64,000 nt of DNA, from contig NZ_LAJB01000007.1 of the NCBI RefSeq assembly GCF_000970685.1, positions 496,001-560,000 of the forward strand. Reading direction: 5' to 3'. The position numbers and the translations under genes were made by a program. The notes below the pieces were generated by a model, which was not told where the DNA came from, made no database searches, and worked only from the letters and a program-made list of their open reading frames with translations. Of this stretch, positions 9,390-29,551 are shown one piece after another; within the stretch, counting starts at the first letter, position 1, and every line of letters begins with the position of its first letter. This DNA comes from Domibacillus indicus (GTDB taxonomy: Bacteria; Bacillota; Bacilli; Bacillales; Domibacillaceae).

Positions 9390-9432
9390 ATGATTCCTAC
9401 TGGGTTCGAACCAGCGACCTCTACCCTGTCAA
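9390..9432. repeat. Attachment site at the left element boundary (partial tRNA-Val 3' end)
   Basis: These 43 bp are identical to 29478-29520, which form the 3' half of the intact tRNA-Val gene. Identity stops sharply at both ends. Only the T arm, acceptor 3' side and part of the anticodon arm are present, so this copy is not a functional tRNA. It is the distal att site of the integrated element. Confidence 0.92.
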
Positions 9433-9979: not shown

Positions 9980-10174
9980 TCATTGGGTTAGTAAATTGAA
10001 AGCTTTGATCACTCGTTCCGTCCCCTGATTGTATAGCTCTTCTTCGTATGTATTTACAGCTCTCTCCCTCATTTTTAGTCTTTCCTTTTTCTTCACAGGA
10101 ACAAATTTACCACTCTGGTACTCCTTAATCAATTCACCTAAGTTCAGATAAAACGCCATCCATGGGGAAAACAA
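9980..10174 (-). pseudogene. Gene remnant read into from the distal end of the CRISPR array
   Basis: The frame of 64 codons has no ribosome-binding site, and its apparent start lies inside the last CRISPR spacer. The first 17 nt of the last repeat are read as coding sequence, after which unrelated sequence ending AVNTYEEELYNQGTERVIKAF continues. The segment YEEELYNQGTE resembles the start of the small protein at 27426-27584 (YEEELKNQGFE). It therefore looks like the 3' remains of a gene interrupted where the array ends. A relation to the C-terminal part of Rpn/PD-(D/E)XK transposase-like proteins is possible but unproven. Confidence 0.5.
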
Positions 10175-13006
10175 CGCTTGCCTTGAATAATCTAATCCCT
10201 CTAAGTTCAGATAAAACGGGCTTACAAATGGGCGTATTTGGGTGGCGTGGCAATTTATATCCCTCTGAGTTCAGTTAAAACGATGTATGGGAATGGCTTG
10301 GATGGTTAGATCTAAATAATTTATATCCCTCTAAGTTCAGATAAAACTACAGTGAAGCGCCGCACGGACAAAAATTTTATCCATTTACATCCCTCTAAGT
10401 TCAGATAAAACGCAAACTTGCGTACAACTTGCAAAAAGTTTAGCCGAATTTACATCCCTCTAAGTTCAGATAAAACGACTTCATCTTCATTCTTTAAATT
10501 CTTGCCTATTCTATTTACATCCCTCTAAGTTCAGATAAAACAATCATCCTAATTTCATCAATGAAAATCCTGTCACATTTACATCCCTCTAAGTTCAGAT
10601 AAAACGCACCCCTCTCTTTTTATGTAGTTAGTTTATATTTATATTTACATCCCTCTAAGTTCAGATAAAACGAATCGATTTAGGAATGTCACAGCCGCGC
10701 GGCAAACATTTACATCCCTCTAAGTTCAGATAAAACAGCAGCAAATCAAAGATGAACTTGACGTTGATTTAATTTACATCCCTCTAAGTTCAGATAAAAC
10801 CTTCGTACAGCTGAATATATTCTTCTACATGCTTCATTTACATCCCTCTAAGTTCAGATAAAACTCCATTGTTCCGTTTTGTGCAGAAAGCAATTTCACA
10901 TATTTACATCCCTCTAAGTTCAGATAAAACAAGAATATTGCTTCTGTAATTAGAAGGTATATTCAAATTTACATCCCTCTAAGTTCAAATAAAACCGATT
11001 TGGATAGCGATTCTGGTTGTATTTGTGATTATTTACATCCCTCTAAGTTCAGATAAAACATGAAGCCATTTTATATGACCGATGGTGTGAAATTAATTTA
11101 CATCCCTCTAAGTTCAGATAAAACTTAACTTCTCCTCTCGCTCAATTAACGCTTCTTTCATTTACATCCCTCTAAGTTCAGATAAAACTTTCATGGGGTT
11201 ACTGTAAAATAATATTTACCAAAATTTACATCCCTCTAAGTTCAGATAAAACGAATCCAGGTCAGAAGTTCTCAGGATATAACATCACATTTACATCCCT
11301 CTAAGTTCAGATAAAACTACCCGTGGAAATGATGGATTTGACACGGTGAACTAATTTACATCCCTCTAAGTTCAGATAAAACAGGAATTAGGTTCAAAAG
11401 GAATTGTAAATCGCATCGTATTTACATCCCTCTAAGTTCAGATAAAACACAAGCTGCGCCGATTCCTACCGGCACATTAAAACTATTTACATCCCTCTAA
11501 GTTCAGATAAAACGATGAGCCTGGGCGTGCAGAAACCATTGATATTCTATTTACATCCCTCTAAGTTCAGATAAAACGCACAGCTATTACAACAGAGAAC
11601 TATGAAAAGATGGATTTACATCCCTCTAAGTTCAGATAAAACAATCGCCATCTGCAAAGGAAATGGAAACCCCGTCAAATTTACATCCCTCTAAGTTCAG
11701 ATAAAACAGCCTGGATTCAAGCTCTTACTTCATGATGGCGGTGAAATTTACATCCCTCTAAGTTCAGATAAAACATGCGGAAATTGGGGCTTGTGTTCAG
11801 TCTCATCATCCAATTTACATCCCTCTAAGTTCAGATAAAACATCACAAGAAAAGAGCGGCGAGAAGTTATTTAGTTGATTTACATCCCTCTAAGTTCAGA
11901 TAAAACCGCTTTTTCTGCGGATTGATACATAAGGTCCTTCGTAATTTACATCCCTCTAAGTTCAGATAAAACACAAAAGCCGGTTCCTGTTCCAGATCGT
12001 CCAGGCGTATTTACATCCCTCTAAGTTCAGATAAAACCAAGGCAGCCTTAACGGGCGTCTTGCGGTTCGATGAAATTTACATCCCTCTAAGTTCAGATAA
12101 AACTGGATCGGTACTATTTTTTAAAGACGTACCTAATTTATTTACATCCCTCTAAGTTTAGATAAAACTTTCTTGATGCCGTTTCAGCCTGTTTTCGCTT
12201 ATTCATTTACATCCCTCTAAGTTCAGATAAAACTGATCTGGATGAAAACGGCAAGGCATCGGAAAACATTTACATCCCTCTAAGTTCAGATAAAACCGGC
12301 GCATCCCCACAGATTACCGCAGACGGTGATTTATTTACATCCCTCTAAGTTCAGATAAAACCACTTGCCGAAGCTCTTGAATACACTTTCCGTATGATTT
12401 ACATCCCTCTAAGTTCAGATAAAACGGTCATTGGTGGATTTAATGCGATTCTCTCGTTTTTATTTACATCCCTCTAAGTTCAGATAAAACCGACGCACCT
12501 ATCAAGCGAGCGATCTTGCTGAATACATTTACATCCCTCTAAGTTCAGATAAAACGTTATGACAGGCAGACAAGGGTATGGAAAAACGAATTTACATCCC
12601 TCTAAGTTCAGATAAAACCGCTACCACTAAATAAAGACCGTCACTTGCTTTAAATTTACATCCCTCTAAGTTCAGATAAAACGGGGAAAACGGCTTTTGC
12701 CATTAACTTAGCGATGAAATTTACATCCCTCTAAGTTCAGATAAAACAAGCGCCCTCTCGAACCCATATGTGCTGTTTACGGATTTACATCCCTCTAAGT
12801 TCAGATAAAACTTTCAGACGCATCGAACGAGATTGAGCAATATAGACATTTACATCCCTCTAAGTTCAGATAAAACCGATGCTCGCGACAATGAGAGAAG
12901 CCGTGCAACCGAATTTACATCCCTCTAAGTTCAGATAAAACGATTAACCCTAGCCAAACTCAATCTGCTTGTATTGAATTTACATCCCTCTAAGTTCAGA
13001 TAAAAC
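10126..13006 (-). CRISPR. Type I-B CRISPR array, 45 repeats and 44 spacers
   Basis: A 29-bp repeat, on the transcribed minus strand beginning GTTTTATCTGAAC and ending GGATGTAAAT, recurs every 63-67 bp, leaving spacers of about 34-38 bp. It resembles the 29-nt repeats of clostridial type I-B systems. Forty-one repeats are canonical or differ at one base (variants ending at 10995 and 12168). The four lowest-coordinate repeats are degenerate, and the last (10126-10154) keeps only its first 17 nt. Degeneracy marks the old, leader-distal end, so the leader is at the cas2 side and transcription runs right to left. All spacers differ, with no internal duplications noticed. Confidence 0.98.
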
Positions 13007-18816: not shown

Positions 18817-20588
18817 TTTGCTTCCTCCCCTATCGGTTTTTCTTTGTATTCTTCGCCTAGCAACCCTGCAATAAAAGCGCCGCCTATTGTCTCAAAATCA
18901 AGTCCACCCTTTTTTAAAACATCCAGGAACAGAGAGGAAACAGGCAGCCCAACTCCGACATGGAGCCGCATTATGGTATCTAAGAAACTATCAGGATTTC
19001 CTGTCTTCAGAGAATTCAAAAGACGATAAGCAATCCCCTGTATTTTTTTGGAGGCATCCGCCCGGTAAACATCATGAGTTTCCGTATTTGTTTTTCCTTC
19101 CAATCTTTTTTGAAGAGCGATACCCTGTTTATAAATCACATAAATCTGTTTGTCTTGTTTTTCGTCCATTTCTTCATTCACTCCTTTTTTCACCCGCATG
19201 ATTTTCGCCCGCTGCTGCACCATAACCAAAGCTCCCGTTCGGTGTGTGGCGTTCTTAATGGCTTCTCTCACATAACGGAACATTTCCTGCTTCGGGTCAC
19301 GCCCGTTTAAAATAGATCGAATAAACTGGTCTTTTTCTTCTTTCAAAAACAAGACCCTTAATGCATTGCTTTGATTGGATGAAAAATATTTAGATGCATA
19401 GGCCGGCATATGATAGTAATCCAGCACCGTTTTTTTTGACCCGTCAGTATGGACTTCGATAAACAATAACGAACGCTGGCTGCGTTCTGCTTTTTGCTTT
19501 ACATCCGCCAACACCCCAAAGACAGCATCCGTAAAGGAACCACCTTCATTTCGAATATTCCGGTACGTTTCATTAGCGTCATAATTATCTGCAAACCGAG
19601 TTGAATTCAGCACAATCCCTGCATAACGTCTTGTTTCCTTTGCTGTACCGTGTCCGACTTGACGATTATAAAAAGTTGCACCGATGGGGAATAGAAATAA
19701 AATAAGGCGGGCCACGGCACTCATCGGAATGGGATTTATTTTGTTAAAGTCATAAAAAAAGTTGGTTGCATTTGTCCTGGAAATGCCAAGGGGCAAAAAC
19801 ATCATTTCTTCAAAGTTCATCGTCGCATATAGAGAATCAATAAATGAGCAGGGTAGCAAATTTTCGTGAAACCATTGGTGAGTGTCTGATAATTTCATTT
19901 TTTTAATGGCTTTCAACCAACCTTTAAATCCGCTATAATCTTTGTGTTTTTCTAAGAAATCCTTGATTTCTTCTTCACTCTTTGCGGATTGCAATAACTC
20001 TGCGAAAGTAATTTCAAGTCGAGCTGGCTCGATAAAGTCTTTTATCATCCGTTTTAAGTGCGTGTCATACGTCATGGCTGAAAACGTTTTTTGAAGGAAA
20101 CTTGTTTGTCCGTAAAACGGCGAAATATAAAGTGACTTCACATAATTAATTGTCAGCTTCTGATTTATTTCTTCGCTAGTCACAATCTTCAGATATTTAT
20201 CAACATACACTTTCATTTGTTCTATTGACTCTGGCTTTTTCATAACATCGATAACTCTCTTTAATTCAACCGCCTGGGTGGGAAAATACTTATCAATCTT
20301 TTTTAATTGCTCAGCAGCAAAACGGGATATTTCCTTGAATGCATCTCTTTCATTTTTCTCTGCCCAGCTTAGGAGATTTTGCATTCTTTTAGCATCGCGC
20401 TCTGCGATATTGTACGTAGAAAACAAGTAATGAAAATACCTCTCAGCCAGCGTATCCAGCATATCAACTGTAATAGCTGGATTTCCATTTATAATTGGCA
20501 ATTCATCAGGGTACAGCCTTTTTAGCCCGATAAGGCCTGCGTTGAAAAACCATTCTTCACTTATAAGCTCAACGGCATAGCCACTCAT
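18813..20588 (-). CDS. cas8b: Type I-B Cascade large subunit Cas8b (Cst1-like)
   Basis: This 591-residue protein lies in the large-subunit position between cas6 and cas7, with N-terminal segment EEWFFNAGLIGLKRLYP and C-terminal GLPVSSLFLDVLKKGGLDFE. This fits Cas8b1/Cst1 of the type I-B Tneap branch, the same class as the Clostridioides systems. The subunit contacts the PAM and stabilises the R-loop. Sequence conservation in this family is weak, so the call depends partly on position and on the Cst2-type Cas7. It overlaps both neighbours by 4 bp. Confidence 0.88.
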   Translation of the reverse strand: MSGYAVELISEEWFFNAGLIGLKRLYPDELPIINGNPAITVDMLDTLAERYFHYLFSTYNIAERDAKRMQNLLSWAEKNERDAFKEISRFAAEQLKKIDKYFPTQAVELKRVIDVMKKPESIEQMKVYVDKYLKIVTSEEINQKLTINYVKSLYISPFYGQTSFLQKTFSAMTYDTHLKRMIKDFIEPARLEITFAELLQSAKSEEEIKDFLEKHKDYSGFKGWLKAIKKMKLSDTHQWFHENLLPCSFIDSLYATMNFEEMMFLPLGISRTNATNFFYDFNKINPIPMSAVARLILFLFPIGATFYNRQVGHGTAKETRRYAGIVLNSTRFADNYDANETYRNIRNEGGSFTDAVFGVLADVKQKAERSQRSLLFIEVHTDGSKKTVLDYYHMPAYASKYFSSNQSNALRVLFLKEEKDQFIRSILNGRDPKQEMFRYVREAIKNATHRTGALVMVQQRAKIMRVKKGVNEEMDEKQDKQIYVIYKQGIALQKRLEGKTNTETHDVYRADASKKIQGIAYRLLNSLKTGNPDSFLDTIMRLHVGVGLPVSSLFLDVLKKGGLDFETIGGAFIAGLLGEEYKEKPIGEEAK

Positions 20589-21313
20589 GTCCTCATTCCT
20601 TCCATTTCGATATCAAGAAGGCCAAAACCAGCCGATCTTCTTTTAGAACATCCGTTTTTATACAAGCAATCCAAATCGGCTGGATCGCCCTCTACAAAAA
20701 TCATGCCCTTATAAGCTGTCAAATATAAGACTTGGTTCCCTCCATTGATATGGTGTGTGTTTTCTTTAATTACCACTTTCTTCATTTGCATTGGCCGGAC
20801 GATGAGCGGTTTTTTCAGCGATCTTTTAAGCATCCGCTGTACTGTTAAATTGGCGTAATAATTAAATTCTTGCTCGTAGCCAGGATCGTGAGGCGCAAGC
20901 GGCTGCTGATCTGCTGATTCAATTAATAGAGGAGACAAGGTGCGGAACAAGACAGATGACGACTGGATATTTTTTTCCGGAAGCATTTCAATCCTTCCAC
21001 GCTCCCACTCATATGTTTTATAGCGATATTTCCGAATATGAACCAAGCCGTTATATAACATAGTCATAAACATAAGGTCAGAAGAAGAGATAGTGATCGT
21101 AAAGCTGTCCACCTTAATAGAATCTCCCTCGAAACGGAAATTTTTTAAATAGGTACTGTAGGCAAAAGGTTTCATTTCTCTATTTTGGCTGTCAAAAAGT
21201 TGCTTTGCATAATGAGGATCAGATGCCGTGACAGCTTCTTTGATCATACTCAAAAACCCAAACCGATAAGCGACTGGAATTTCTTTAGCTTTTATATTAA
21301 TTTTTAAACGCAC
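20585..21313 (-). CDS. cas6: CRISPR RNA endoribonuclease Cas6
   Basis: About 242 residues. The first beta strand is MRLKINIKAKEIPVAYRF, and the C-terminal glycine-rich loop typical of Cas6 is present as KRRSAGFGLLDIE. Cas6 cuts the array transcript within each repeat to give crRNAs. A TTG two codons upstream is open, but the GTG at 21313 has GGGAGG nine bases before it and gives the usual N-terminus. It is the first gene of the cas operon and is preceded by a consensus-like promoter and by a degenerate mini-CRISPR (21418-21501). Confidence 0.93.
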   Translation of the reverse strand: MRLKINIKAKEIPVAYRFGFLSMIKEAVTASDPHYAKQLFDSQNREMKPFAYSTYLKNFRFEGDSIKVDSFTITISSSDLMFMTMLYNGLVHIRKYRYKTYEWERGRIEMLPEKNIQSSSVLFRTLSPLLIESADQQPLAPHDPGYEQEFNYYANLTVQRMLKRSLKKPLIVRPMQMKKVVIKENTHHINGGNQVLYLTAYKGMIFVEGDPADLDCLYKNGCSKRRSAGFGLLDIEMEGMRT

Positions 21314-21326
21314 TCTCAAACACCTC

Positions 21327-21357
21327 CCATATTAAAATTTATATTTAGGCATAAATA
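21327..21357 (+). promoter_or_regulatory. Candidate target of the pseudo-CRISPR guide in the cas leader
   Basis: CCA at 21327-21329, in the position of a type I-B PAM, is followed by TATTAAAATTT (21330-21340), identical to the first 11 nt of the pseudo-spacer upstream. Pairing further along is poor (14th to 16th positions and scattered bases only). The site abuts the cas6 ribosome-binding site (21323-21328) and, at full guide length, would reach the predicted transcription start near 21359. Seed-only pairing would allow Cascade binding without cleavage. Confidence 0.6.
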
Positions 21358-21365
21358 ACATTTGA

Positions 21366-21394
21366 ATAATATACCAATTTTGTAAAAATGACAA
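21366..21394 (-). promoter_or_regulatory. Sigma-A promoter of the cas operon
   Basis: On the minus strand TTGTCA (21389-21394) is followed after exactly 17 bp by TATTAT (21366-21371), close to consensus. The predicted start near 21359 leaves a leader of about 45 nt before the cas6 GTG. Confidence 0.75.
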
Positions 21395-21417
21395 ACAAAA
21401 AGTGAACTTCCCTTGAT

Positions 21418-21501
21418 GATCACTTTCCACTTCGTTCAGATATAAATTTTGTTCATACAATCAAAATTTTAATAATTTACATCCCACTTCGTTCATAAGA
21501 C
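21418..21501 (-). ncRNA. Degenerate mini-CRISPR: CreR/CreA-like cas-regulating guide RNA (candidate)
   Basis: Two degenerate copies of the array repeat flank a 28-nt pseudo-spacer (21447-21474). The 5' copy on the minus strand (21475-21501) keeps the final 11 repeat bases GGGATGTAAAT unchanged, which would supply the crRNA 5' handle. The 3' copy (21418-21446) matches the repeat at 19 of 29 positions. Both share the same altered core GAACGAAGTGG. A -10-like CATAAT/TAAAAT lies about 15-25 nt upstream, with no clear -35. The pseudo-spacer seed matches the cas leader next to CCA. Pseudo-repeat guides upstream of cas operons that reprogram Cascade into a repressor are known as CreR/CreA; that this is one is inference. 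Confidence 0.65.
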
Positions 21502-21987
21502 TGAATTAATTTTATTATGACAAGATGCAAACGAAAAGCGAATTAAGACATCTAAAAATTCAGATGTGCTTTTGCCTATCATAAAAACAACAACTTCTTT
21601 TTGAGAATCCTTTTGTTTTCCGACAACTCTACCTTTTGAAAGTTACTTACCTTATAGTTCCTAAATTACAAGATTACTTTCTAATCATAGTTAATATTAT
21701 AAAGAAGGACATTTTTAAACATAACATTTTAGTTTGCTGTTAATTGAGGATTAAACAAATGAAAGATCTGATAGCATTAGGAAAACCACTATAGGTCTCT
21801 TTTAAAGTATCGTTTAAAACTACACAAGACAAAATTAAAATTTACACTCTACGACATCAATTACAGCTCTAAATGGTCTAAAAGCTTTTAATTATTTACA
21901 AAGCGCTTGATTCATCATACTTGTCCTGTAGCCTTTTTTACTCGCTCTATCAAAAAAATCCATTTTATGTATGCCTTTACAAATTAT
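21502..21987. other. A+T-rich intergenic stretch with a small inverted repeat
   Basis: No convincing gene is present. ACATCT and AGATGT at about 21548-21567 form a short inverted repeat upstream of the pseudo-CRISPR. The stretch separates the leftward cas operon from the rightward unknown gene at 22053. Confidence 0.5.
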
Positions 21988-22016
21988 TTGAAAATTAATA
22001 CTATTATGTATATATA
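21988..22016 (+). promoter_or_regulatory. Sigma-A promoter for the unknown gene at 22053
   Basis: TTGAAA (21988-21993), a 17-bp spacer and TATATA (22011-22016) precede the gene, which starts at 22053 after AGAGGTGATGAC. Confidence 0.65.
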
Positions 22017-22052
22017 ACAATATAGTATTACATCAGAAAAAGAGGTGATGAC

Positions 22053-22373
22053 ATGTTGTATTTATATGAAATTAAGAATCTGTATAATGACCTTTGTAAT
22101 TTTGAAATTAGCCCACATGAGTCCATCGAAAACTTCCATATTCGCAGTGAAATGAATGAAGTATATCACTTACTGACTGAACAAGAGAAAACAGAACTTG
22201 ATAAATGCGACTATAAAATAATTGAAAACGCTGAAGCTTTACTACATCATCTTCAAACAGTATATGACTTTGACAACACTAAGCGACCAATAGAGGAATG
22301 GTGGTGGCACTTACATAAAATCTCTTGCAGTGAGTTAACTGTTGCTCTAGAGATTAAAAAGATGAACAGTTAA
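22053..22373 (+). CDS. Unknown small protein divergent from the cas operon
   Basis: This 106-residue soluble protein is not recognised. It is acidic and mostly helical in appearance, with a central SEMNEVYHLLTEQEKTELDK segment and a tryptophan-rich IEEWWWHLHKISC motif near residue 83. It has a good ribosome-binding site (GAGGTGAT) and its own promoter, so it is probably a real gene. It is transcribed away from the CRISPR-Cas operon, sharing the control region that holds the pseudo-CRISPR. A regulatory, toxin-antitoxin or anti-defence role is possible from position but nothing in the sequence proves it. Confidence 0.7.
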   Translation: MLYLYEIKNLYNDLCNFEISPHESIENFHIRSEMNEVYHLLTEQEKTELDKCDYKIIENAEALLHHLQTVYDFDNTKRPIEEWWWHLHKISCSELTVALEIKKMNS

Positions 22374-23192: not shown

Positions 23193-23216
23193 ATAGGCAC
23201 CATTAATGGTGCCTAT
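23193..23216. repeat. 24-bp perfect palindrome, CCATTAATGG core (copy 1)
   Basis: ATAGGCACCATT is followed at once by its exact reverse complement. The core CCATTAATGG is shared with the palindrome at 23408-23439. Confidence 0.85.
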
Positions 23217-23308
23217 TATAAAATCAAGCCTTACTACAAGTCTTTGTCCTAAGATATTATACAGAGGTAGCGGGGCACAAACCCTATATCTATAAGGGAT
23301 CTGTTATA

Positions 23309-23330
23309 GTGCCTATTAATGGTTCCTATT
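23309..23330. repeat. Degenerate palindrome related to the flanking copies (copy 2)
   Basis: GTGCCTATTAATGGTTCCTA keeps the ATTAATGG core and the TTCCTA arm of the third copy but only part of the symmetry. Confidence 0.55.
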
Positions 23331-23407
23331 TATAGATTCCATTATATAGAGGGTTTTAATTTATACATAATTATTAAGATCAATCTCTATTTTTTATAGC
23401 AGAAACC

Positions 23408-23439
23408 GCTAATAGGAACCATTAATGGTTCCTATTAGC
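23408..23439. repeat. 32-bp perfect palindrome, CCATTAATGG core (copy 3)
   Basis: GCTAATAGGAACCATT is followed directly by its exact reverse complement without a loop. The absence of a loop and T-run argues against a terminator and for a dimeric protein-binding or replication site. Confidence 0.85.
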
Positions 23440-24579: not shown

Positions 24580-25914
24580 TTAAGAATTCTGTTGATTTAA
24601 ATCCAAGAATTTAGAATATTCCTTAATAAATGCCAACTCTATCGTGCCAACAGATCCATTACGCTGTTTAGCTAAAATGACTTCTACTGTATTCTTTACA
24701 CCCTTATCCTTACTGTAATAATCGTCCCGGTAAAGAAAGGAGACGATATCAGCATCCTGCTCGATCGACCCTGAATCACGCAGGTCAGACAACATCGGCC
24801 GCTTATCCTGACGCTGTTCTACTGCCCGGCTTAACTGGCTGAGCAACATAACCGGCACATCAAACTGGCGTGCCATCTGCTTGAGCTCTCGGGTGATATA
24901 TCCAATAGCCAAGTCATGCCGTTCAAACTTACCAATTGGCGTGATCAGCTGCAGGTAATCAATCACGACAATATGCTTCTTGCCTGGATGATCTCGCTTT
25001 GTTTTCCGGACAGCTGCCCGTATATCAGCAACTGTCTGACGAGAATTATCGTGGATCTCAATCGCCCACTTATTGTATTCATTCATCGCATAGTCGGCTC
25101 TATTATCGTCTACTTCGGTAAACATTTTGGAGGGGTTGCGCCACTTGGAACCTTCGATATTTCCAATGCTAGATAGGAAGCGCTTGATCAGCTGCTTTTG
25201 CGACATTTCAAGCGAGAAAATATCCGCTACACCGCCCTGTTCGCAACAAGCACCCGCCAGGCTTAGAGCGTATGCTGTTTTCCCCATCGATGGACGACCG
25301 GCCACAATGATTAAATCTCCCCCTTGCCATCCACCTGTCATCCGATCGAGCTCTGCCAGCCCGCTCGATATGCCCGTCAGTTCACCGGCATCCTCATAAA
25401 TCTCATCAAAGATTTCGCTAAGGACTTCCACCTTTGTCCGGCCTTGTTTCTGCCCCATTTCCTGAGCCTCAATAAAGGTACTATACACTTTTTCTGCTGT
25501 TTCTTCAGTCGGATTGGCTAAATAATCCGAGGCAGCCCGGCTCATTAATCGCTTTTTATACTGATCGATCAGCATTGCCTGGTAATAGGCAAAGTTTGCA
25601 GTTGTTGGAACAGATCCAGCCAAGTCAGATAGATAGCTTGTGCCACCGACGTTCTCAATCTGGCCGTCTTCAACTAGCTGCTGAGTAACCATGATTACAT
25701 CTACCGGCACATTTTGTTCAGCTAGCTTTTTAATAGCCTCAAAGATGCACCGGTTAGCTGCCCGGGTAAAATGCTCAATCGTTAAGTTTGTCTCGTAAGC
25801 AAGATCCGGTTCAAGAAACATGGAGCCTAAAACCGTATTTTCTACTTCTGCTGCCTGGTACGGATCACTGCTTGTATGGATTAATTGATTTTGGTCTATG
25901 TTTGTCTCTCTCAA
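24580..25914 (-). CDS. Replicative DNA helicase, DnaB family (phage-type, G40P-like)
   Basis: About 444 residues: an N-terminal DnaB domain (AAEVENTVLGSMFLEPDL through VGGTSYLSDLAGSVP) and a RecA-like ATPase domain with Walker A GRPSMGKTAYAL near residue 205, Walker B HIVVIDYLQLI, and SQLSRAVEQR plus DLRDSGSIEQDADIV motifs. It is a hexameric 5'-3' helicase for replication of the element. A GTG at 25932 is open, but the TTG at 25914 has AAGGAG nine bases upstream and is preferred; either way the gene overlaps the preceding one. The chromosomal dnaB is elsewhere, so this is an element-specific copy. Confidence 0.93.
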   Translation of the reverse strand: MRETNIDQNQLIHTSSDPYQAAEVENTVLGSMFLEPDLAYETNLTIEHFTRAANRCIFEAIKKLAEQNVPVDVIMVTQQLVEDGQIENVGGTSYLSDLAGSVPTTANFAYYQAMLIDQYKKRLMSRAASDYLANPTEETAEKVYSTFIEAQEMGQKQGRTKVEVLSEIFDEIYEDAGELTGISSGLAELDRMTGGWQGGDLIIVAGRPSMGKTAYALSLAGACCEQGGVADIFSLEMSQKQLIKRFLSSIGNIEGSKWRNPSKMFTEVDDNRADYAMNEYNKWAIEIHDNSRQTVADIRAAVRKTKRDHPGKKHIVVIDYLQLITPIGKFERHDLAIGYITRELKQMARQFDVPVMLLSQLSRAVEQRQDKRPMLSDLRDSGSIEQDADIVSFLYRDDYYSKDKGVKNTVEVILAKQRNGSVGTIELAFIKEYSKFLDLNQQNS

Positions 25915-26173
25915 TCCGTTCCGCTCCTTCACGTTCCCACTGTTTTACCTTTTCCAGATGCTCATTCTTTGGCCGTTCATAGACTGATATTTCCGCGATA
26001 GATGGTGGGAATCTGTTATCTTTAATATGCTGTCTTAGACGAGCGTCGACCTTATCAAAGTCCATCCCATGAAGCATTTCAGACCATAAGATTACTCGGT
26101 CATCTGTTACTTCAAAACGGGAATACGCCGCGTTAATCGTATGCAGTATTTTAAACACCTGCTGCTTGTCCAC
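25865..26173 (-). CDS. Helicase loader / helicase inhibitor, SPP1 G39P-like
   Basis: This 102-residue protein starts MDKQQVFKILHTINAAYSRF and contains the segment IKDNRFPPSIAEISVYERPK, the pattern of the G39P family (phage SPP1 gp39). Such proteins bind the phage DnaB-type helicase and the initiator and deliver the helicase to the origin. It lies directly between the initiator (adjacent, stop to start without gap) and the helicase (overlap of about 50 bp), the same gene order as SPP1 genes 38-39-40. The basic, disordered C-terminus is also typical. Confidence 0.85.
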   Translation of the reverse strand: MDKQQVFKILHTINAAYSRFEVTDDRVILWSEMLHGMDFDKVDARLRQHIKDNRFPPSIAEISVYERPKNEHLEKVKQWEREGAERIERDKHRPKSINPYKQ

Positions 26174-27055
26174 TTAATCGCCCCCAAAATTCAATTTGCC
26201 TTCCCGTTCAAGTCGGGCAAAACGTTCCTCTAGCGTTTCTTCCTGTTTCCTCGGCTTGCTCCCGAATTGAACAACGTTGCGGTTCTTTTCTTCATGGAAT
26301 CGTTCCAGGATAATAGGCTCGCAGTACCGGAAGCTTTTCACTTTGTTGTGAGGGCTTTTTTGATTTTGTGTTTGCACAATGTCCTGAATCCAGCCCTGCA
26401 GCTTGTCGATTGAAATATCCAACTCAGCAATACGCTCGATTGAATTCTCTTCTTCTGGCTTTAAGTAAAAACCCATATTCCGTACAGCAATAAAGCAGTT
26501 AGCGATTTGTTGTTTACGTGCCTCTGTATCCTGTGATATTTTATTTCCGGTTTCAGGCGTCCCGTCACTTTGGTTCTGAGGAGCGAAATCTTTATCGCCG
26601 TTAGCTACTGCTGCTAATTCTTTAATTCTTACATTCTTGTTATTGTTCGGACTTCGTTCTGGGTTCGTTCTGTAAACGTTCTGACTTCCGTTCTGGGTTT
26701 CTTCTTCATCACCCTGTAAATGCTGATATGACGCGTAATTGACGATGGTGAACAGTGTTCCTAGTTCCGTTTCGTCTACCGTGACCATTCCGTTTTCAAT
26801 CAATTTAGCAGAACACCTCTTTATGGTGCTTGTTGAGTACTGTTTGACGCCTCTCCCTTCCTTGTAAGAAAGATCATGTGCTAGCATCCGATATGAACGG
26901 ATGTACTGGCCTTGTTTAAGGACCTGACCTCCTACCTTGGTGCCGTCTTTATGTGCCGCTTTAAGGAGCAGGAGAGTAAACAAACGGAACGTTGAAACGT
27001 CGTACCACAGTTTGTTGTCGAGTATTTTTCTGTGAAATTTAATCCAACCTTGCAT
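26174..27055 (-). CDS. Phage replisome organiser / origin-binding initiator (DnaD/G38P-like)
   Basis: This 293-residue protein starts MQGWIKFHRKILDNKLWYDV, the classical N-terminus of the phage replisome organiser winged-helix domain, followed by RMLAHDLSYKEGRG and the recognition segment STSTIKRCSAKLIENGMVTV. An Asn/Ser/Arg-rich linker (around residues 115-145) is encoded by regularly spaced CAGAACG iterons. The C-terminal half (QQIANCFIAVRNMGFYLKPEE) resembles a protein-interaction domain. It should bind the element origin and recruit the G39P-like protein and helicase. Confidence 0.88.
   Translation of the reverse strand: MQGWIKFHRKILDNKLWYDVSTFRLFTLLLLKAAHKDGTKVGGQVLKQGQYIRSYRMLAHDLSYKEGRGVKQYSTSTIKRCSAKLIENGMVTVDETELGTLFTIVNYASYQHLQGDEEETQNGSQNVYRTNPERSPNNNKNVRIKELAAVANGDKDFAPQNQSDGTPETGNKISQDTEARKQQIANCFIAVRNMGFYLKPEEENSIERIAELDISIDKLQGWIQDIVQTQNQKSPHNKVKSFRYCEPIILERFHEEKNRNVVQFGSKPRKQEETLEERFARLEREGKLNFGGD
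26644..26695. other. Candidate replication origin: iterons inside the initiator gene
   Basis: CGTTCTG (CAGAACG on the coding strand) recurs at 26655, 26666, 26677 and 26689, at steps of 11, 11 and 12 bp, with a degenerate fifth unit TGTTCGG at 26644. An A+T-rich stretch (about 26600-26645) adjoins. Origins made of iterons inside the initiator gene are known from lambda (gene O) and SPP1 (gene 38). Confidence 0.7.
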
Positions 27056-27321: not shown

Positions 27322-27381
27322 GTTACTAATTAAGATTTTTATACTGCATAAGTTACTAATTAAGATTTTTATACTGCATAA
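27322..27381. repeat. Two perfect 30-bp tandem repeats
   Basis: Units 27322-27351 and 27352-27381 are identical, each starting GTTACTAATTAAG and ending ATACTGCATAA, and a truncated third GTAAC follows. They lie upstream of the initiator operon (minus strand) and could be operator or origin-associated sites. Confidence 0.85.
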
Positions 27382-28237: not shown

Positions 28238-29389
28238 TTGAAAGGATCTGTAATTAAACGGGGGGAAACCTGGACTTATATAATTGATATAGGTAAAGAT
28301 CCATTAACAGGGAAACGAAAACAAAAAACAAAGGGGGGATTTCGTTTAAAAAAAGACGCAGAGGCAGCAATGCGTAAGCTGTTAAGCGAAGTTGACGAAG
28401 GGGATTATTTCAGGCCCAGTGACGAGCAGTTTTCTTTGTTTATACAGAAATGGTTTTATGAGTACTACAGCAAGCGCGTAAAAGATACCACCGCAAAATC
28501 AAGAGAATACATGATGCAAAAGCACTTAATCGATGGAAACCCGTTTAGCAATAAACCAATTTCGGCCATTACAACGGAAGATATCGATGCTTTGTATAAC
28601 TTAAAGTACGAGGAAGAATACAGTCCGGCTTATATCCGTAAAATCCATAATATGCTCAATCAAGCTTTTGATAAGGCCAAAAAGTGGAGGAAAATTAAAT
28701 ATAATCCTGCTTCAGAAGCAGAATCCCCACCAATTAGACAAAAAGAGATGGTGATCTGGTCTTTCAATGAAATTCACAGGTTTCTTGATGTGTGCAGAGG
28801 TGAAAGATGTTATCTTACATTTTTACTTGCCCTCTATACGGGTATGCGAAGAGGAGAACTATTAGGTCTTAAATGGAGTGATATTGATTTTGATAAGCAA
28901 ATTATTAACGTAAACCGGCAACTTGCTTATATTCCATTAAAAGGATATGTTGTAACAACTTTAAAAACAAAAAAATCCCAACGGAAAATTCCAATTTCTA
29001 ACGAAGTGATAAAAGCATTATTGATATCTAAGACCGAGCAACAGGAATGGAAAGAAAAACTGGGACAAGCATATGAGGACAACGACTTTGTTATATGTAC
29101 CGAGTTTGGCAAACCACGGGATCCTAGCAATGTGCTGAGAACAATGAAACGAGTATGTGAGTCCGCGAAAGTTACTCCTATTCGTTTTCACGATTTGCGT
29201 CACACTCATGCCTCTATCCTTATCTCAAGCAATGTAGATATAGTAAGAGTTGCCAAGCGGCTGGGGCATGCAGATCCTAAGATAACTCTCGGGGTGTATG
29301 CCCACCTTGTTCCCGATGCCACTGATGACTCGGCTGACATCTTCGAAGAAGCAATAAAAAAATCCGTGAGCAAAGGGTTAGCAAATTAG
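28238..29389 (+). CDS. int: Tyrosine integrase of the element
   Basis: This 383-residue phage-type tyrosine recombinase has an N-terminal arm-binding domain (VIKRGETWTYIIDIGKDPLTG), a SAM-like core-binding domain (about residues 60-155) and a catalytic domain with the first Arg in LYTGMRRGELLGLKW, HDLRHTHAS (His318, Arg321), GHAD (His344) and the nucleophile Tyr354 in GVYAHL. All catalytic residues are present, so it should be active. The start is TTG with a perfect AAGGAGGT upstream. It reads toward the tRNA-Val gene and ends about 90 bp from it, the usual position relative to the att site. Confidence 0.96.
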   Translation: MKGSVIKRGETWTYIIDIGKDPLTGKRKQKTKGGFRLKKDAEAAMRKLLSEVDEGDYFRPSDEQFSLFIQKWFYEYYSKRVKDTTAKSREYMMQKHLIDGNPFSNKPISAITTEDIDALYNLKYEEEYSPAYIRKIHNMLNQAFDKAKKWRKIKYNPASEAESPPIRQKEMVIWSFNEIHRFLDVCRGERCYLTFLLALYTGMRRGELLGLKWSDIDFDKQIINVNRQLAYIPLKGYVVTTLKTKKSQRKIPISNEVIKALLISKTEQQEWKEKLGQAYEDNDFVICTEFGKPRDPSNVLRTMKRVCESAKVTPIRFHDLRHTHASILISSNVDIVRVAKRLGHADPKITLGVYAHLVPDATDDSADIFEEAIKKSVSKGLAN

Positions 29390-29477: not shown

Positions 29478-29520
29478 ATGATTCCTACTGGGTTCGAACC
29501 AGCGACCTCTACCCTGTCAA
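29478..29520. repeat. Attachment site at the right boundary (within tRNA-Val)
   Basis: This is identical over 43 bp to 9390-9432. It covers the tRNA 3' half from the anticodon loop to the discriminator base, so integration keeps the tRNA intact. Confidence 0.92.
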
Positions 29521-29551
29521 GGTAGCGCTCTCCCAGCTGAGCTAAGGAATC
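29479..29551 (-). tRNA. tRNA-Val (GAC anticodon)
   Basis: A 73-nt cloverleaf: acceptor GATTCCT pairs with AGGAATC, D-arm GCTCAGCTGGGAGAGC, anticodon arm CTACC-TTGACAG-GGTAG giving GAC, and T arm GGTTCGAACC. CCA is not encoded. It is the insertion target of the element. Confidence 0.95.

What the first reader, a model, noticed from the sequence alone, without database searches (positions are those of the whole stretch)
21327..21501. CreR/CreA-like self-repressing guide upstream of a type I-B cas operon
Two degenerate CRISPR repeats (21475-21501 and 21418-21446) flank a 28-nt pseudo-spacer. The 5' copy keeps the exact repeat end GGGATGTAAAT that would become the crRNA handle. The first 11 nt of the pseudo-spacer (TATTAAAATTT) match 21330-21340 in the cas6 leader, directly after CCA (a known type I-B PAM) and directly beside the cas6 ribosome-binding site, downstream of a promoter TTGTCA-17-TATTAT. 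Position, orientation, retained handle, PAM-like triplet and seed-only match all fit a cas-regulating RNA that turns Cascade into a repressor of its own operon. The spacer is shorter than array spacers and the match is A/T only, so chance is not excluded. Because the guide is also antisense to the mRNA leader, direct antisense pairing is an alternative. I know of no such element described on a tRNA-integrated satellite-like island.
Basis: partly seen in the sequence, partly recalled or inferred. Interest (0 to 1): 0.93.

Follow-up and report, generated by a model that had tools for sequence, protein, structure and literature searches.

The report
CRISPR guide that represses its cas genes
Next to a bacterial CRISPR immune system lies a small decayed CRISPR unit whose guide matches the start of the system's own first gene, and the same design recurs in distant relatives, so it is most likely a built-in brake on the immune system, a kind of element already known from other CRISPR systems.

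Summary
At 21418-21503 (minus strand) a degenerate repeat, a 28-nt guide and a second degenerate repeat lie upstream of a complete type I-B operon and its 45-repeat array. Guide nt 1-11 equal 21330-21340, next to CCA and the cas6 ribosome-binding site. Relatives answer the worry about chance. Domibacillus robiginosus keeps the guide; its target differs only at positions 6 and 12 of the first 16, which type I guides do not pair. Of 36 I-B loci scanned without asking for a PAM, 12 have such a guide; all 12 targets carry CCA or CCT (background CC 3.2%), positions 13-16 match 46 of 48, position 12 only 3 of 12. Control: 1284 array spacers gave 3 seed matches, none with CC. This is a CreR-type cas-regulating RNA, a kind known for I-B, I-E and V-A (review passage): a new member, not a new kind. 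Side findings: the PAM often lies in the Shine-Dalgarno complement; in D. robiginosus the guide ends a 10-repeat array; one guide also fits a second cas operon in its genome; the window copy sits on a 20.1-kb tRNA-Val island. Transcription, processing and repression are inferred.

The parts
21475..21503 (-). psiR1: degenerate repeat that keeps the 3' end which becomes the crRNA 5' handle
   Evidence: 20/29 identical to array repeat, handle 7/7, coordinates
21447..21474 (-). psiS: 28-nt regulatory guide
   Evidence: first 12 nt identical in D. robiginosus
21418..21446 (-). psiR2: degenerate repeat, 5' part kept, handle part largely lost
   Evidence: 19/29, 0 of 2000 shuffles as good; 5' part 11/13, handle 4/7
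21396..21426 (-). terminator-like hairpin and T run at the end of the unit
   Evidence: fold; kept in D. robiginosus; not listed by the simple scan
21495..21523 (-). possible weak creR promoter TTGTCA-17-TCTTAT
   Evidence: by eye, coordinates; not listed by the consensus scan
21366..21394 (-). cas operon promoter TTGTCA-17-TATTAT
   Evidence: 10 of 12 consensus letters; number of sites in the region not above shuffles
21327..21329 (+). PAM CCA (complement of TGG at the cas6 Shine-Dalgarno)
   Evidence: CCA or CCT in 12 of 12 loci with a guide
21330..21345 (+). target of the guide (positions 1-16; 1-11 and 14-16 pair)
20585..21313 (-). cas6 (GTG start by my reading; the ORF list starts at TTG 21319)
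   Evidence: TIGR01877
18813..20588 (-). cas8b1
   Evidence: TIGR01908
17926..18816 (-). cas7 (Cst2/DevR)
   Evidence: TIGR02585
17222..18007 (-). cas5t
   Evidence: TIGR01895
14969..17176 (-). cas3 (HD and helicase)
   Evidence: TIGR01587, TIGR01596
14438..14956 (-). cas4
   Evidence: TIGR00372
13462..14454 (-). cas1
   Evidence: TIGR03641
13200..13460 (-). cas2
   Evidence: TIGR01573
10126..13006 (-). CRISPR array, 45 repeats (20 or more of 29 identical), 44 spacers
9390..9432 (+). left att copy (43 bp, identical to part of tRNA-Val)
29478..29520 (+). right att copy at the 3' part of tRNA-Val
   Evidence: empty site in three genomes of the genus
28238..29389 (+). island integrase (tyrosine recombinase)
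   Evidence: PF00589, phrog_1
24580..27055 (-). island replication module: DnaB-like helicase, G39P-like loader/inhibitor, DnaD-like loader

Best explanation
The element is a cas-regulating RNA gene (CreR type). A short RNA psiR1-psiS-psiR2 is transcribed toward cas6 and ended by the hairpin at 21396-21426. Cas6 trims it into a crRNA-like guide that keeps the 5' handle. Cascade (Cas5-6-7-8b) loaded with it recognises CCA in the complement of the cas6 Shine-Dalgarno and opens the DNA over about the first 16 guide positions, just downstream of the cas promoter. Pairing too short for Cas3 cutting leaves Cascade bound, so it blocks cas transcription: more free Cascade means less cas expression. 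Shown: anatomy, seed and PAM-like match, conservation, pairing pattern across relatives. Inferred: transcription, Cas6 processing, binding, repression, and relief when ordinary crRNAs or anti-CRISPRs take up Cascade (the last from reviews on CreR).
For: Unit and target read directly. D. robiginosus, cas6 82% identical, keeps the handle, the guide seed and the hairpin, with a CCA-flanked target that differs only at positions 6 and 12 within 1-16. Scan of 36 I-B loci (129 candidate guide starts) with no PAM asked: 12 loci have a guide with 10/10 seed match in the cas6 leader, and 12 of 12 targets are next to CCA (6) or CCT (6); background CC 915 of 28872 sites. Positions 13-16, not used in the search, match 46 of 48 (P 1e-20 at background 0.32); position 12 matches 3 of 12 (Fisher 7e-7 against 13-16); these P values treat the 12 loci as independent, which the window and L005 are not. 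Controls: 1284 array spacers, 3 seed hits, 0 with CC; 420 guide/foreign-leader pairs, 10 seed hits, 4 with CC, of which 2 are the window/L005 exchange and 1 lies in one genome. psiR1 keeps the handle 7/7 in 12 of 12 (the search asked for 5/7) while psiR2 keeps 40 of 84 positions, the pattern printed for creA (PMC8501985, PMC9458426, passages). Guides are 24-33 nt in 11 of 12, 35 in L026. Printed I-B PAMs include CCA in Listeria (PMC3886909, passages) and CCA, CCN, CCT (PMC8482600, Table 1 seen in a passage).
Against: No RNA data; nothing shows that the unit is transcribed or represses. No creR promoter and no terminator were listed by the consensus scan, and the cas promoter match is not above shuffles. 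The PAM of the window system is unmeasured: its array gave no phage match and 2 of 44 spacers tried in viral contigs gave none. Of 7 protospacers of relatives' arrays only 4 have CC (CCG, CCA, CCG, CCA; the others CTA, TTT, CAA), and a Parageobacillus I-B system uses TTA (PMC10551041, passages). The window is the only one of the 12 with both positions 12 and 13 unpaired. 24 of 36 loci have no such guide under the same rule (23 if the one-mismatch case L044 is counted), and the trait is not clearly clustered on the Cas7 tree (9 changes; shuffled mean 10.8; 80 of 500 shuffles as low).
Confidence: 0.9

Rival explanations
1. Direct antisense RNA: the guide pairs with the cas6 mRNA leader beside the ribosome-binding site and blocks translation, without Cascade.
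For: In 9 of 12 loci including the window the guide is antisense to the cas6 leader. Predicted duplex energy against shuffled guides: L052 z -6.0, L048 -5.6, L045 -2.8, L042 -2.3, L005 -2.1, L054 -1.9, window -1.7.
Against: In 3 of 12 (L026, L055, L059) the guide has the sense of the coding strand and cannot pair with the cas mRNA that way (z -0.7, 0.0, 0.2). L027 (z -0.7) and L038 (z -0.1) are unremarkable although antisense. Matches skip position 12 in 9 of 12 and position 6 in 4 of 12, as expected for a Cascade R-loop. psiR1 keeps the Cas handle. Antisense pairing may still add to repression.
Confidence: 0.05
2. Array remnant: two decayed repeats left from an older array, with a chance A/T seed match.
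For: D. robiginosus has a 10-repeat array ending in this unit; the match is A/T only.
Against: Guide and target are kept together in D. robiginosus, and the pattern recurs with CCA or CCT in 12 of 36 loci. Shuffles and array spacers do not reproduce it. Descent from an array and a present role do not exclude each other.
Confidence: 0.02
3. CreTA-type addiction module: the guide represses a small toxin RNA gene and protects the cas locus.
For: Same guide anatomy; a haloarchaeal creTA lies immediately upstream of its cas operon (PMC8501985, passages).
Against: The target lies between the cas promoter and the cas6 start with the Shine-Dalgarno next to it, so the repressed gene is cas6. No ORF of 60 aa or more lies between psiR2 and cas6; shorter RNA toxins were not searched for.
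Confidence: 0.02

Closest known systems
CreR, cas-regulating RNAs (Liu et al. 2023, Cell Host Microbe; reference seen in PMC12948488; the paper itself is not held)
   Same: crRNA-like RNA with partial complementarity to the cas promoter; stated for I-B, I-E and V-A (PMC13131331, passage) and for type I and V-A (PMC12737573, passages)
   Different: Here in Bacilli I-B with Cas8b1; PAM often in the Shine-Dalgarno complement; pairing mostly through position 16; carried on a tRNA-Val island. Whether Liu et al. list such loci could not be read.
CreA of CreTA modules, type I-B haloarchaea (PMC8501985, PMC9458426, passages)
   Same: psiR1-psiS-psiR2; pairing at 1-5 and 7-11 with 6 and 12 dispensable; PAM inside the complement of a conserved promoter element (BRE); Cas5-bound handle kept in psiR1 and degenerated in psiR2
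   Different: Represses a toxin RNA gene; here the target gene is cas6
tracr-L of type II-A (recalled, no call)
   Same: Natural guide that turns the effector into a repressor of its own operon
   Different: Cas9 and tracrRNA-derived; a different effector and a different kind of guide
Shortened crRNAs in Parageobacillus and Haloarcula I-B (PMC10551041, PMC10989794, passages)
   Same: Short guides direct I-B Cascade to repress without cutting (26 nt or less; 24 nt or less)
   Different: Engineered, fully complementary; the Parageobacillus PAM is TTA

Membership tests
CreR (cas-regulating RNA) | Repeat-like, spacer-like, repeat-like unit beside a cas operon | tested here: met
   psiR1 20/29, psiR2 19/29; complete I-B operon
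CreR (cas-regulating RNA) | psiR1 keeps the 5' handle letters, psiR2 loses them (printed for creA; taken over here) | tested here: met
   window 7/7 against 4/7; 84/84 against 40/84 over 12 loci, psiR1 partly by selection; L042 keeps it in psiR2 too
CreR (cas-regulating RNA) | Partial complementarity (seed 1-5, 7-11) to the cas promoter or leader | tested here: met
   10/10 in the window and 11 further loci
CreR (cas-regulating RNA) | Functional PAM at the target | tested here: inconclusive
   CCA present, CCA or CCT in 12 of 12; own PAM not measured, relatives' protospacers 4 of 7 CC
CreR (cas-regulating RNA) | Transcribed and processed by Cas6 | not testable with these tools
   needs small-RNA sequencing
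CreR (cas-regulating RNA) | Represses its cas operon through Cascade; relieved by crRNAs or anti-CRISPRs | not testable with these tools
   needs reporter assays
CreTA | Target is the promoter of a toxin gene | tested here: not met
   target lies beside the cas6 Shine-Dalgarno; no ORF of 60 aa or more between psiR2 and cas6
tracr-L (type II-A; recalled) | Cas9 operon | tested here: not met
   operon is type I-B

The most novel reading that the evidence does not exclude
In Bacilli I-B systems with a CC PAM the Shine-Dalgarno of the first cas gene doubles as the PAM, so a self-repressing guide can be written from the leader alone. In D. robiginosus this guide is the terminal unit of a 10-repeat array, so it would be made from the same precursor as the immune crRNAs; array size and processing would then set the ratio of brake to weapon. 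In another genome (G583) one guide also fits the leader of a second I-B operon, which would make it a shared brake.
Probability: 0.3. Interest if true: 0.65.

Novelty: new member of a known kind. Interest (0 to 1): 0.55.

Why it matters
It places RNA-guided self-control of cas genes in Bacilli I-B systems and on a mobile island, where holding cas expression down after transfer could lower the risk of attacking the new host (inference). The comparison gives a usable rule (CCA or CCT beside the first cas gene's leader, pairing through position 16 except 6 and 12) for finding such guides from sequence. The D. robiginosus array-end guide makes the origin of these guides from ordinary arrays directly testable.

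Tried and rejected
Chance match: rejected by shuffles, array-spacer controls and relatives. CreTA: rejected, the gene after the target is cas6. General antisense mechanism: disfavoured. Rfam, 21100-22100 at E up to 1: three matches, all below gathering scores, one of them CRISPR-DR43 on psiR1 (22.2 bits, gathering 35), the other two taken as chance. PAM from the window's own spacers: no phage hit for the array, none for 2 of 44 spacers in viral contigs. The L042 array gave no phage hit. From I read the flanks of 7 listed hits (H1, H3, H7, H19, H20, H22, H24). Left unread: H2, H4, H21, H23, H25 (the same spacer in a related or duplicate record), H5, H6 and H8-H18 (13 rows, one spacer hitting actinobacterial phages and one Microviridae record, taken as chance), and second places in some records that were not listed. 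Island against plasmids: no match at megablast level. Relatives in the genera or family of positive loci: no locus that was not already in the set.

Papers: Shmakov et al. 2023 (recalled by title and DOI) and Liu et al. 2023 are not held, so whether these loci are already in their lists is open. Nine paper searches gave listings only; the one with the word Domibacillus listed 10 of 2,426 papers, none holding that word. I make no claim that the element is absent from print.

Rows dropped before counts: L060 (no cas6 hit) and four weak Cas7 hits not fetched (G471, G485, G498, G505). L044 (9 of 10 seed, CCT) is not among the 12 but is labelled CreR in the tree (13 of 36). For L038 and L045 no array was found in the locus, so their psiR scores use a repeat typical of relatives.

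Full report
The window lies in a genome of the genus that holds D. robiginosus. On the minus strand it carries a complete type I-B operon, cas6-cas8b1-cas7-cas5t-cas3-cas4-cas1-cas2 (21319 to 13200), followed by an array of 45 repeats at 10126-13006 with 44 spacers of 34-38 nt. The operon sits on a 20.1-kb island: two identical 43-bp copies at 9390-9432 and 29478-29520, the right one in tRNA-Val (29479-29551), an integrase at 28238-29389, and a replication module (DnaB-like helicase, G39P-like protein, DnaD-like loader). In three genomes of the genus (G008, G010, G013; loci L079, L080, L077/L084) a stretch 76-80% identical to the left flank (125-236 bases, att included) runs straight into the tRNA and the right flank, which is the empty site. 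Among the 8 island ORFs outside the cas operon scanned none matched a capsid or packaging family, so satellite-like is a fair but unproven word.

Upstream of cas6 are psiR1 (21475-21503), a 28-nt guide (21447-21474) and psiR2 (21418-21446), then a hairpin with a T run (21396-21426), the cas promoter (21366-21394), the target and the cas6 Shine-Dalgarno. The first 11 nt of the guide equal 21330-21340, preceded by CCA. The consensus scan lists the cas promoter but neither a creR promoter nor a terminator, and its number of promoter-like sites (2) is not above shuffles (2.6). PAM plus seed with position 6 free occurs three times in the genome; the other two lie within open reading frames and do not match through 13-16.

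D. robiginosus (L005) gives the first independent test. Its cas6 is 82% identical. Directly upstream lies a 10-repeat array whose last unit is a repeat, a 28-29-nt guide beginning TATTAAAATTTT as in the window, a degenerate repeat and a terminator hairpin. Its cas6 leader reads CCA TATTACAATTTCAGTT against the guide TATTAAAATTTTAGTT: within 16 positions only 6 and 12 differ. These are the positions that could be mutated without effect in CreA (PMC8501985, passages). In the 20 kb held of this locus tblastn found no cas4, cas1 or cas2.

The second test is wider. I-B loci came from the family sample (3 of 24 genomes, Cas6), the order sample (17 of 397, Cas8b) and the class sample (24 of 398, Cas7); stretches of up to 20 kb were fetched, giving 36 loci in 34 genomes, window and L005 included. 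One rule was applied to all: a repeat tail within 1 kb upstream of cas6 on either strand (129 candidate starts), and a match at guide positions 1-5 and 7-11 within -400 to +20 of cas6 on either strand, with no PAM asked. 12 of 36 loci have such a pair: window, L005, L026, L027, L038, L042, L045, L048, L052, L054, L055 and L059. All 12 targets are preceded by CCA (6) or CCT (6), against 915 of 28872 leader sites with CC (3.2%). Positions 13, 14, 15 and 16, not part of the rule, match in 11, 12, 12 and 11 of 12; position 12 in 3, position 6 in 8, and from 17 to 24 the count is 2-6 of 12. The chance of 46 of 48 at the background rate 0.32 is about 1e-20, and position 12 differs from 13-16 with Fisher P 7e-7. 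The window and L005 share a guide and are not independent. L044 is a near miss: CCT, mismatches at 6 and 8, match from 9 through 19.

Controls: 1284 array spacers against their own leaders gave 3 seed matches, none with CC. 420 pairs of a guide with a foreign leader gave 10 pairs with a seed match and 4 with CC. Two of the four are the window and L005 exchanged. One is the L054 guide on the leader of L050, a second I-B operon in the same genome (G583), with mismatches at 6, 12 and 16. One is unexplained (L027 guide on L044). Shuffled guides gave CC-flanked seed matches in 0 to 0.2% of 2000 trials each.

Geometry. In 9 of 12 the guide is antisense to the cas6 leader, and in 7 (window, L005, L027, L038, L045, L048, L054) I read the PAM as the complement of the GG of the Shine-Dalgarno (sequences; my reading). 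In L026 the guide matches, in the same sense, a TATAAT-like site just upstream of the guide itself. In L055 the unit lies on the opposite strand and its target covers what I read as the cas -10 region. In L059 the target lies just upstream of what I read as the cas promoter. These three cannot act by pairing with the cas mRNA. Antisense duplex energies against shuffled guides are strong for L048 and L052 (z -5.6, -6.0), moderate for L045, L042, L005, L054 and the window (z -2.8 to -1.7), and unremarkable for L026, L027, L038, L055 and L059.

The repeats degenerate as printed for creA (PMC8501985, PMC9458426, passages). psiR1 keeps the handle (84 of 84 positions; the rule asked for at least 5 of 7 per locus), psiR2 does not (40 of 84; L042 is the exception with 7 of 7), while the 5' part is kept better in psiR2 (125 of 156) than in psiR1 (90 of 156). 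Guides are 24-33 nt in 11 of 12. Short guides direct I-B Cascade to repress without cutting (PMC10551041, PMC10989794, passages).

PAM. The window's spacers found no protospacer (only 2 of 44 were tried in viral contigs). For relatives (L034, L052, L036, L031) 7 phage protospacers gave CCG, CCA, CTA, CCG, TTT, CCA and CAA, so 4 of 7 have CC. Listeria I-B uses CCA (PMC3886909, passages), and a survey lists CCA, CCN and CCT among I-B PAMs, CCT for Ureibacillus (PMC8482600, Table 1 seen in a passage). A Parageobacillus I-B uses TTA (PMC10551041, passages), so I-B PAMs vary and the window's remains to be measured.

Evolution. On a Cas7 tree of the 36 loci the 13 loci labelled as having the unit (12 plus L044) need 9 changes, shuffled mean 10.8, 80 of 500 shuffles as low. 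The trait is scattered: old and often lost, or gained many times. Guides differ between lineages while each fits its local leader.

Known or new. Reviews state that CreRs mediate autorepression of I-B, I-E and V-A systems through partial promoter complementarity and respond to crRNA abundance and anti-CRISPRs (PMC13131331, PMC12737573, PMC12948488, passages). The original (Liu et al. 2023) and Shmakov et al. 2023 are not held. On this evidence the element works like a CreR and meets the CreR features that sequence can test, except that its PAM is not measured; RNA and repression are untested. I file it as a new member of a known kind. Not described in the passages that I read: the PAM inside the Shine-Dalgarno complement, a guide as last unit of an array, and a guide that fits two operons of one genome.

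Noticed in passing
L005:8625-9295: D. robiginosus: the regulatory guide is the last unit of a 10-repeat array directly upstream of cas6; cas4, cas1 and cas2 were not found by tblastn in the 20-kb locus, and a second array (9 repeats) lies downstream of cas3.
   Followed up: partly
L054 guide and L050 leader (genome G583): One genome has two I-B operons; the guide of one also fits the cas6 leader of the other next to CCT, with mismatches at 6, 12 and 16.
   Followed up: partly
L026, -232 to -150 from cas6: The guide matches 17 of its first 18 positions in a promoter-like site just upstream of itself (CCT, same sense), as if it repressed its own transcription.
   Followed up: no
window 23193-23437: Three copies of a palindrome-like sequence (ATAGGCACCATTAATGGTGCCTATT and variants) about 110 bp apart, near the island replication genes; possible origin or regulator sites.
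   Followed up: no
window 27322-27381: Perfect 30-bp tandem duplication near the island HTH gene.
   Followed up: no
window 22053-22373: 106-aa ORF between the unit and the replication genes without a match in NCBIfam, Pfam or PHROGs at E 0.001.
   Followed up: no
L029: A second I-B locus of genome G034 has cas8b in two separate matches and no cas3, cas4, cas1 or cas2 match in the stretch held.
   Followed up: no
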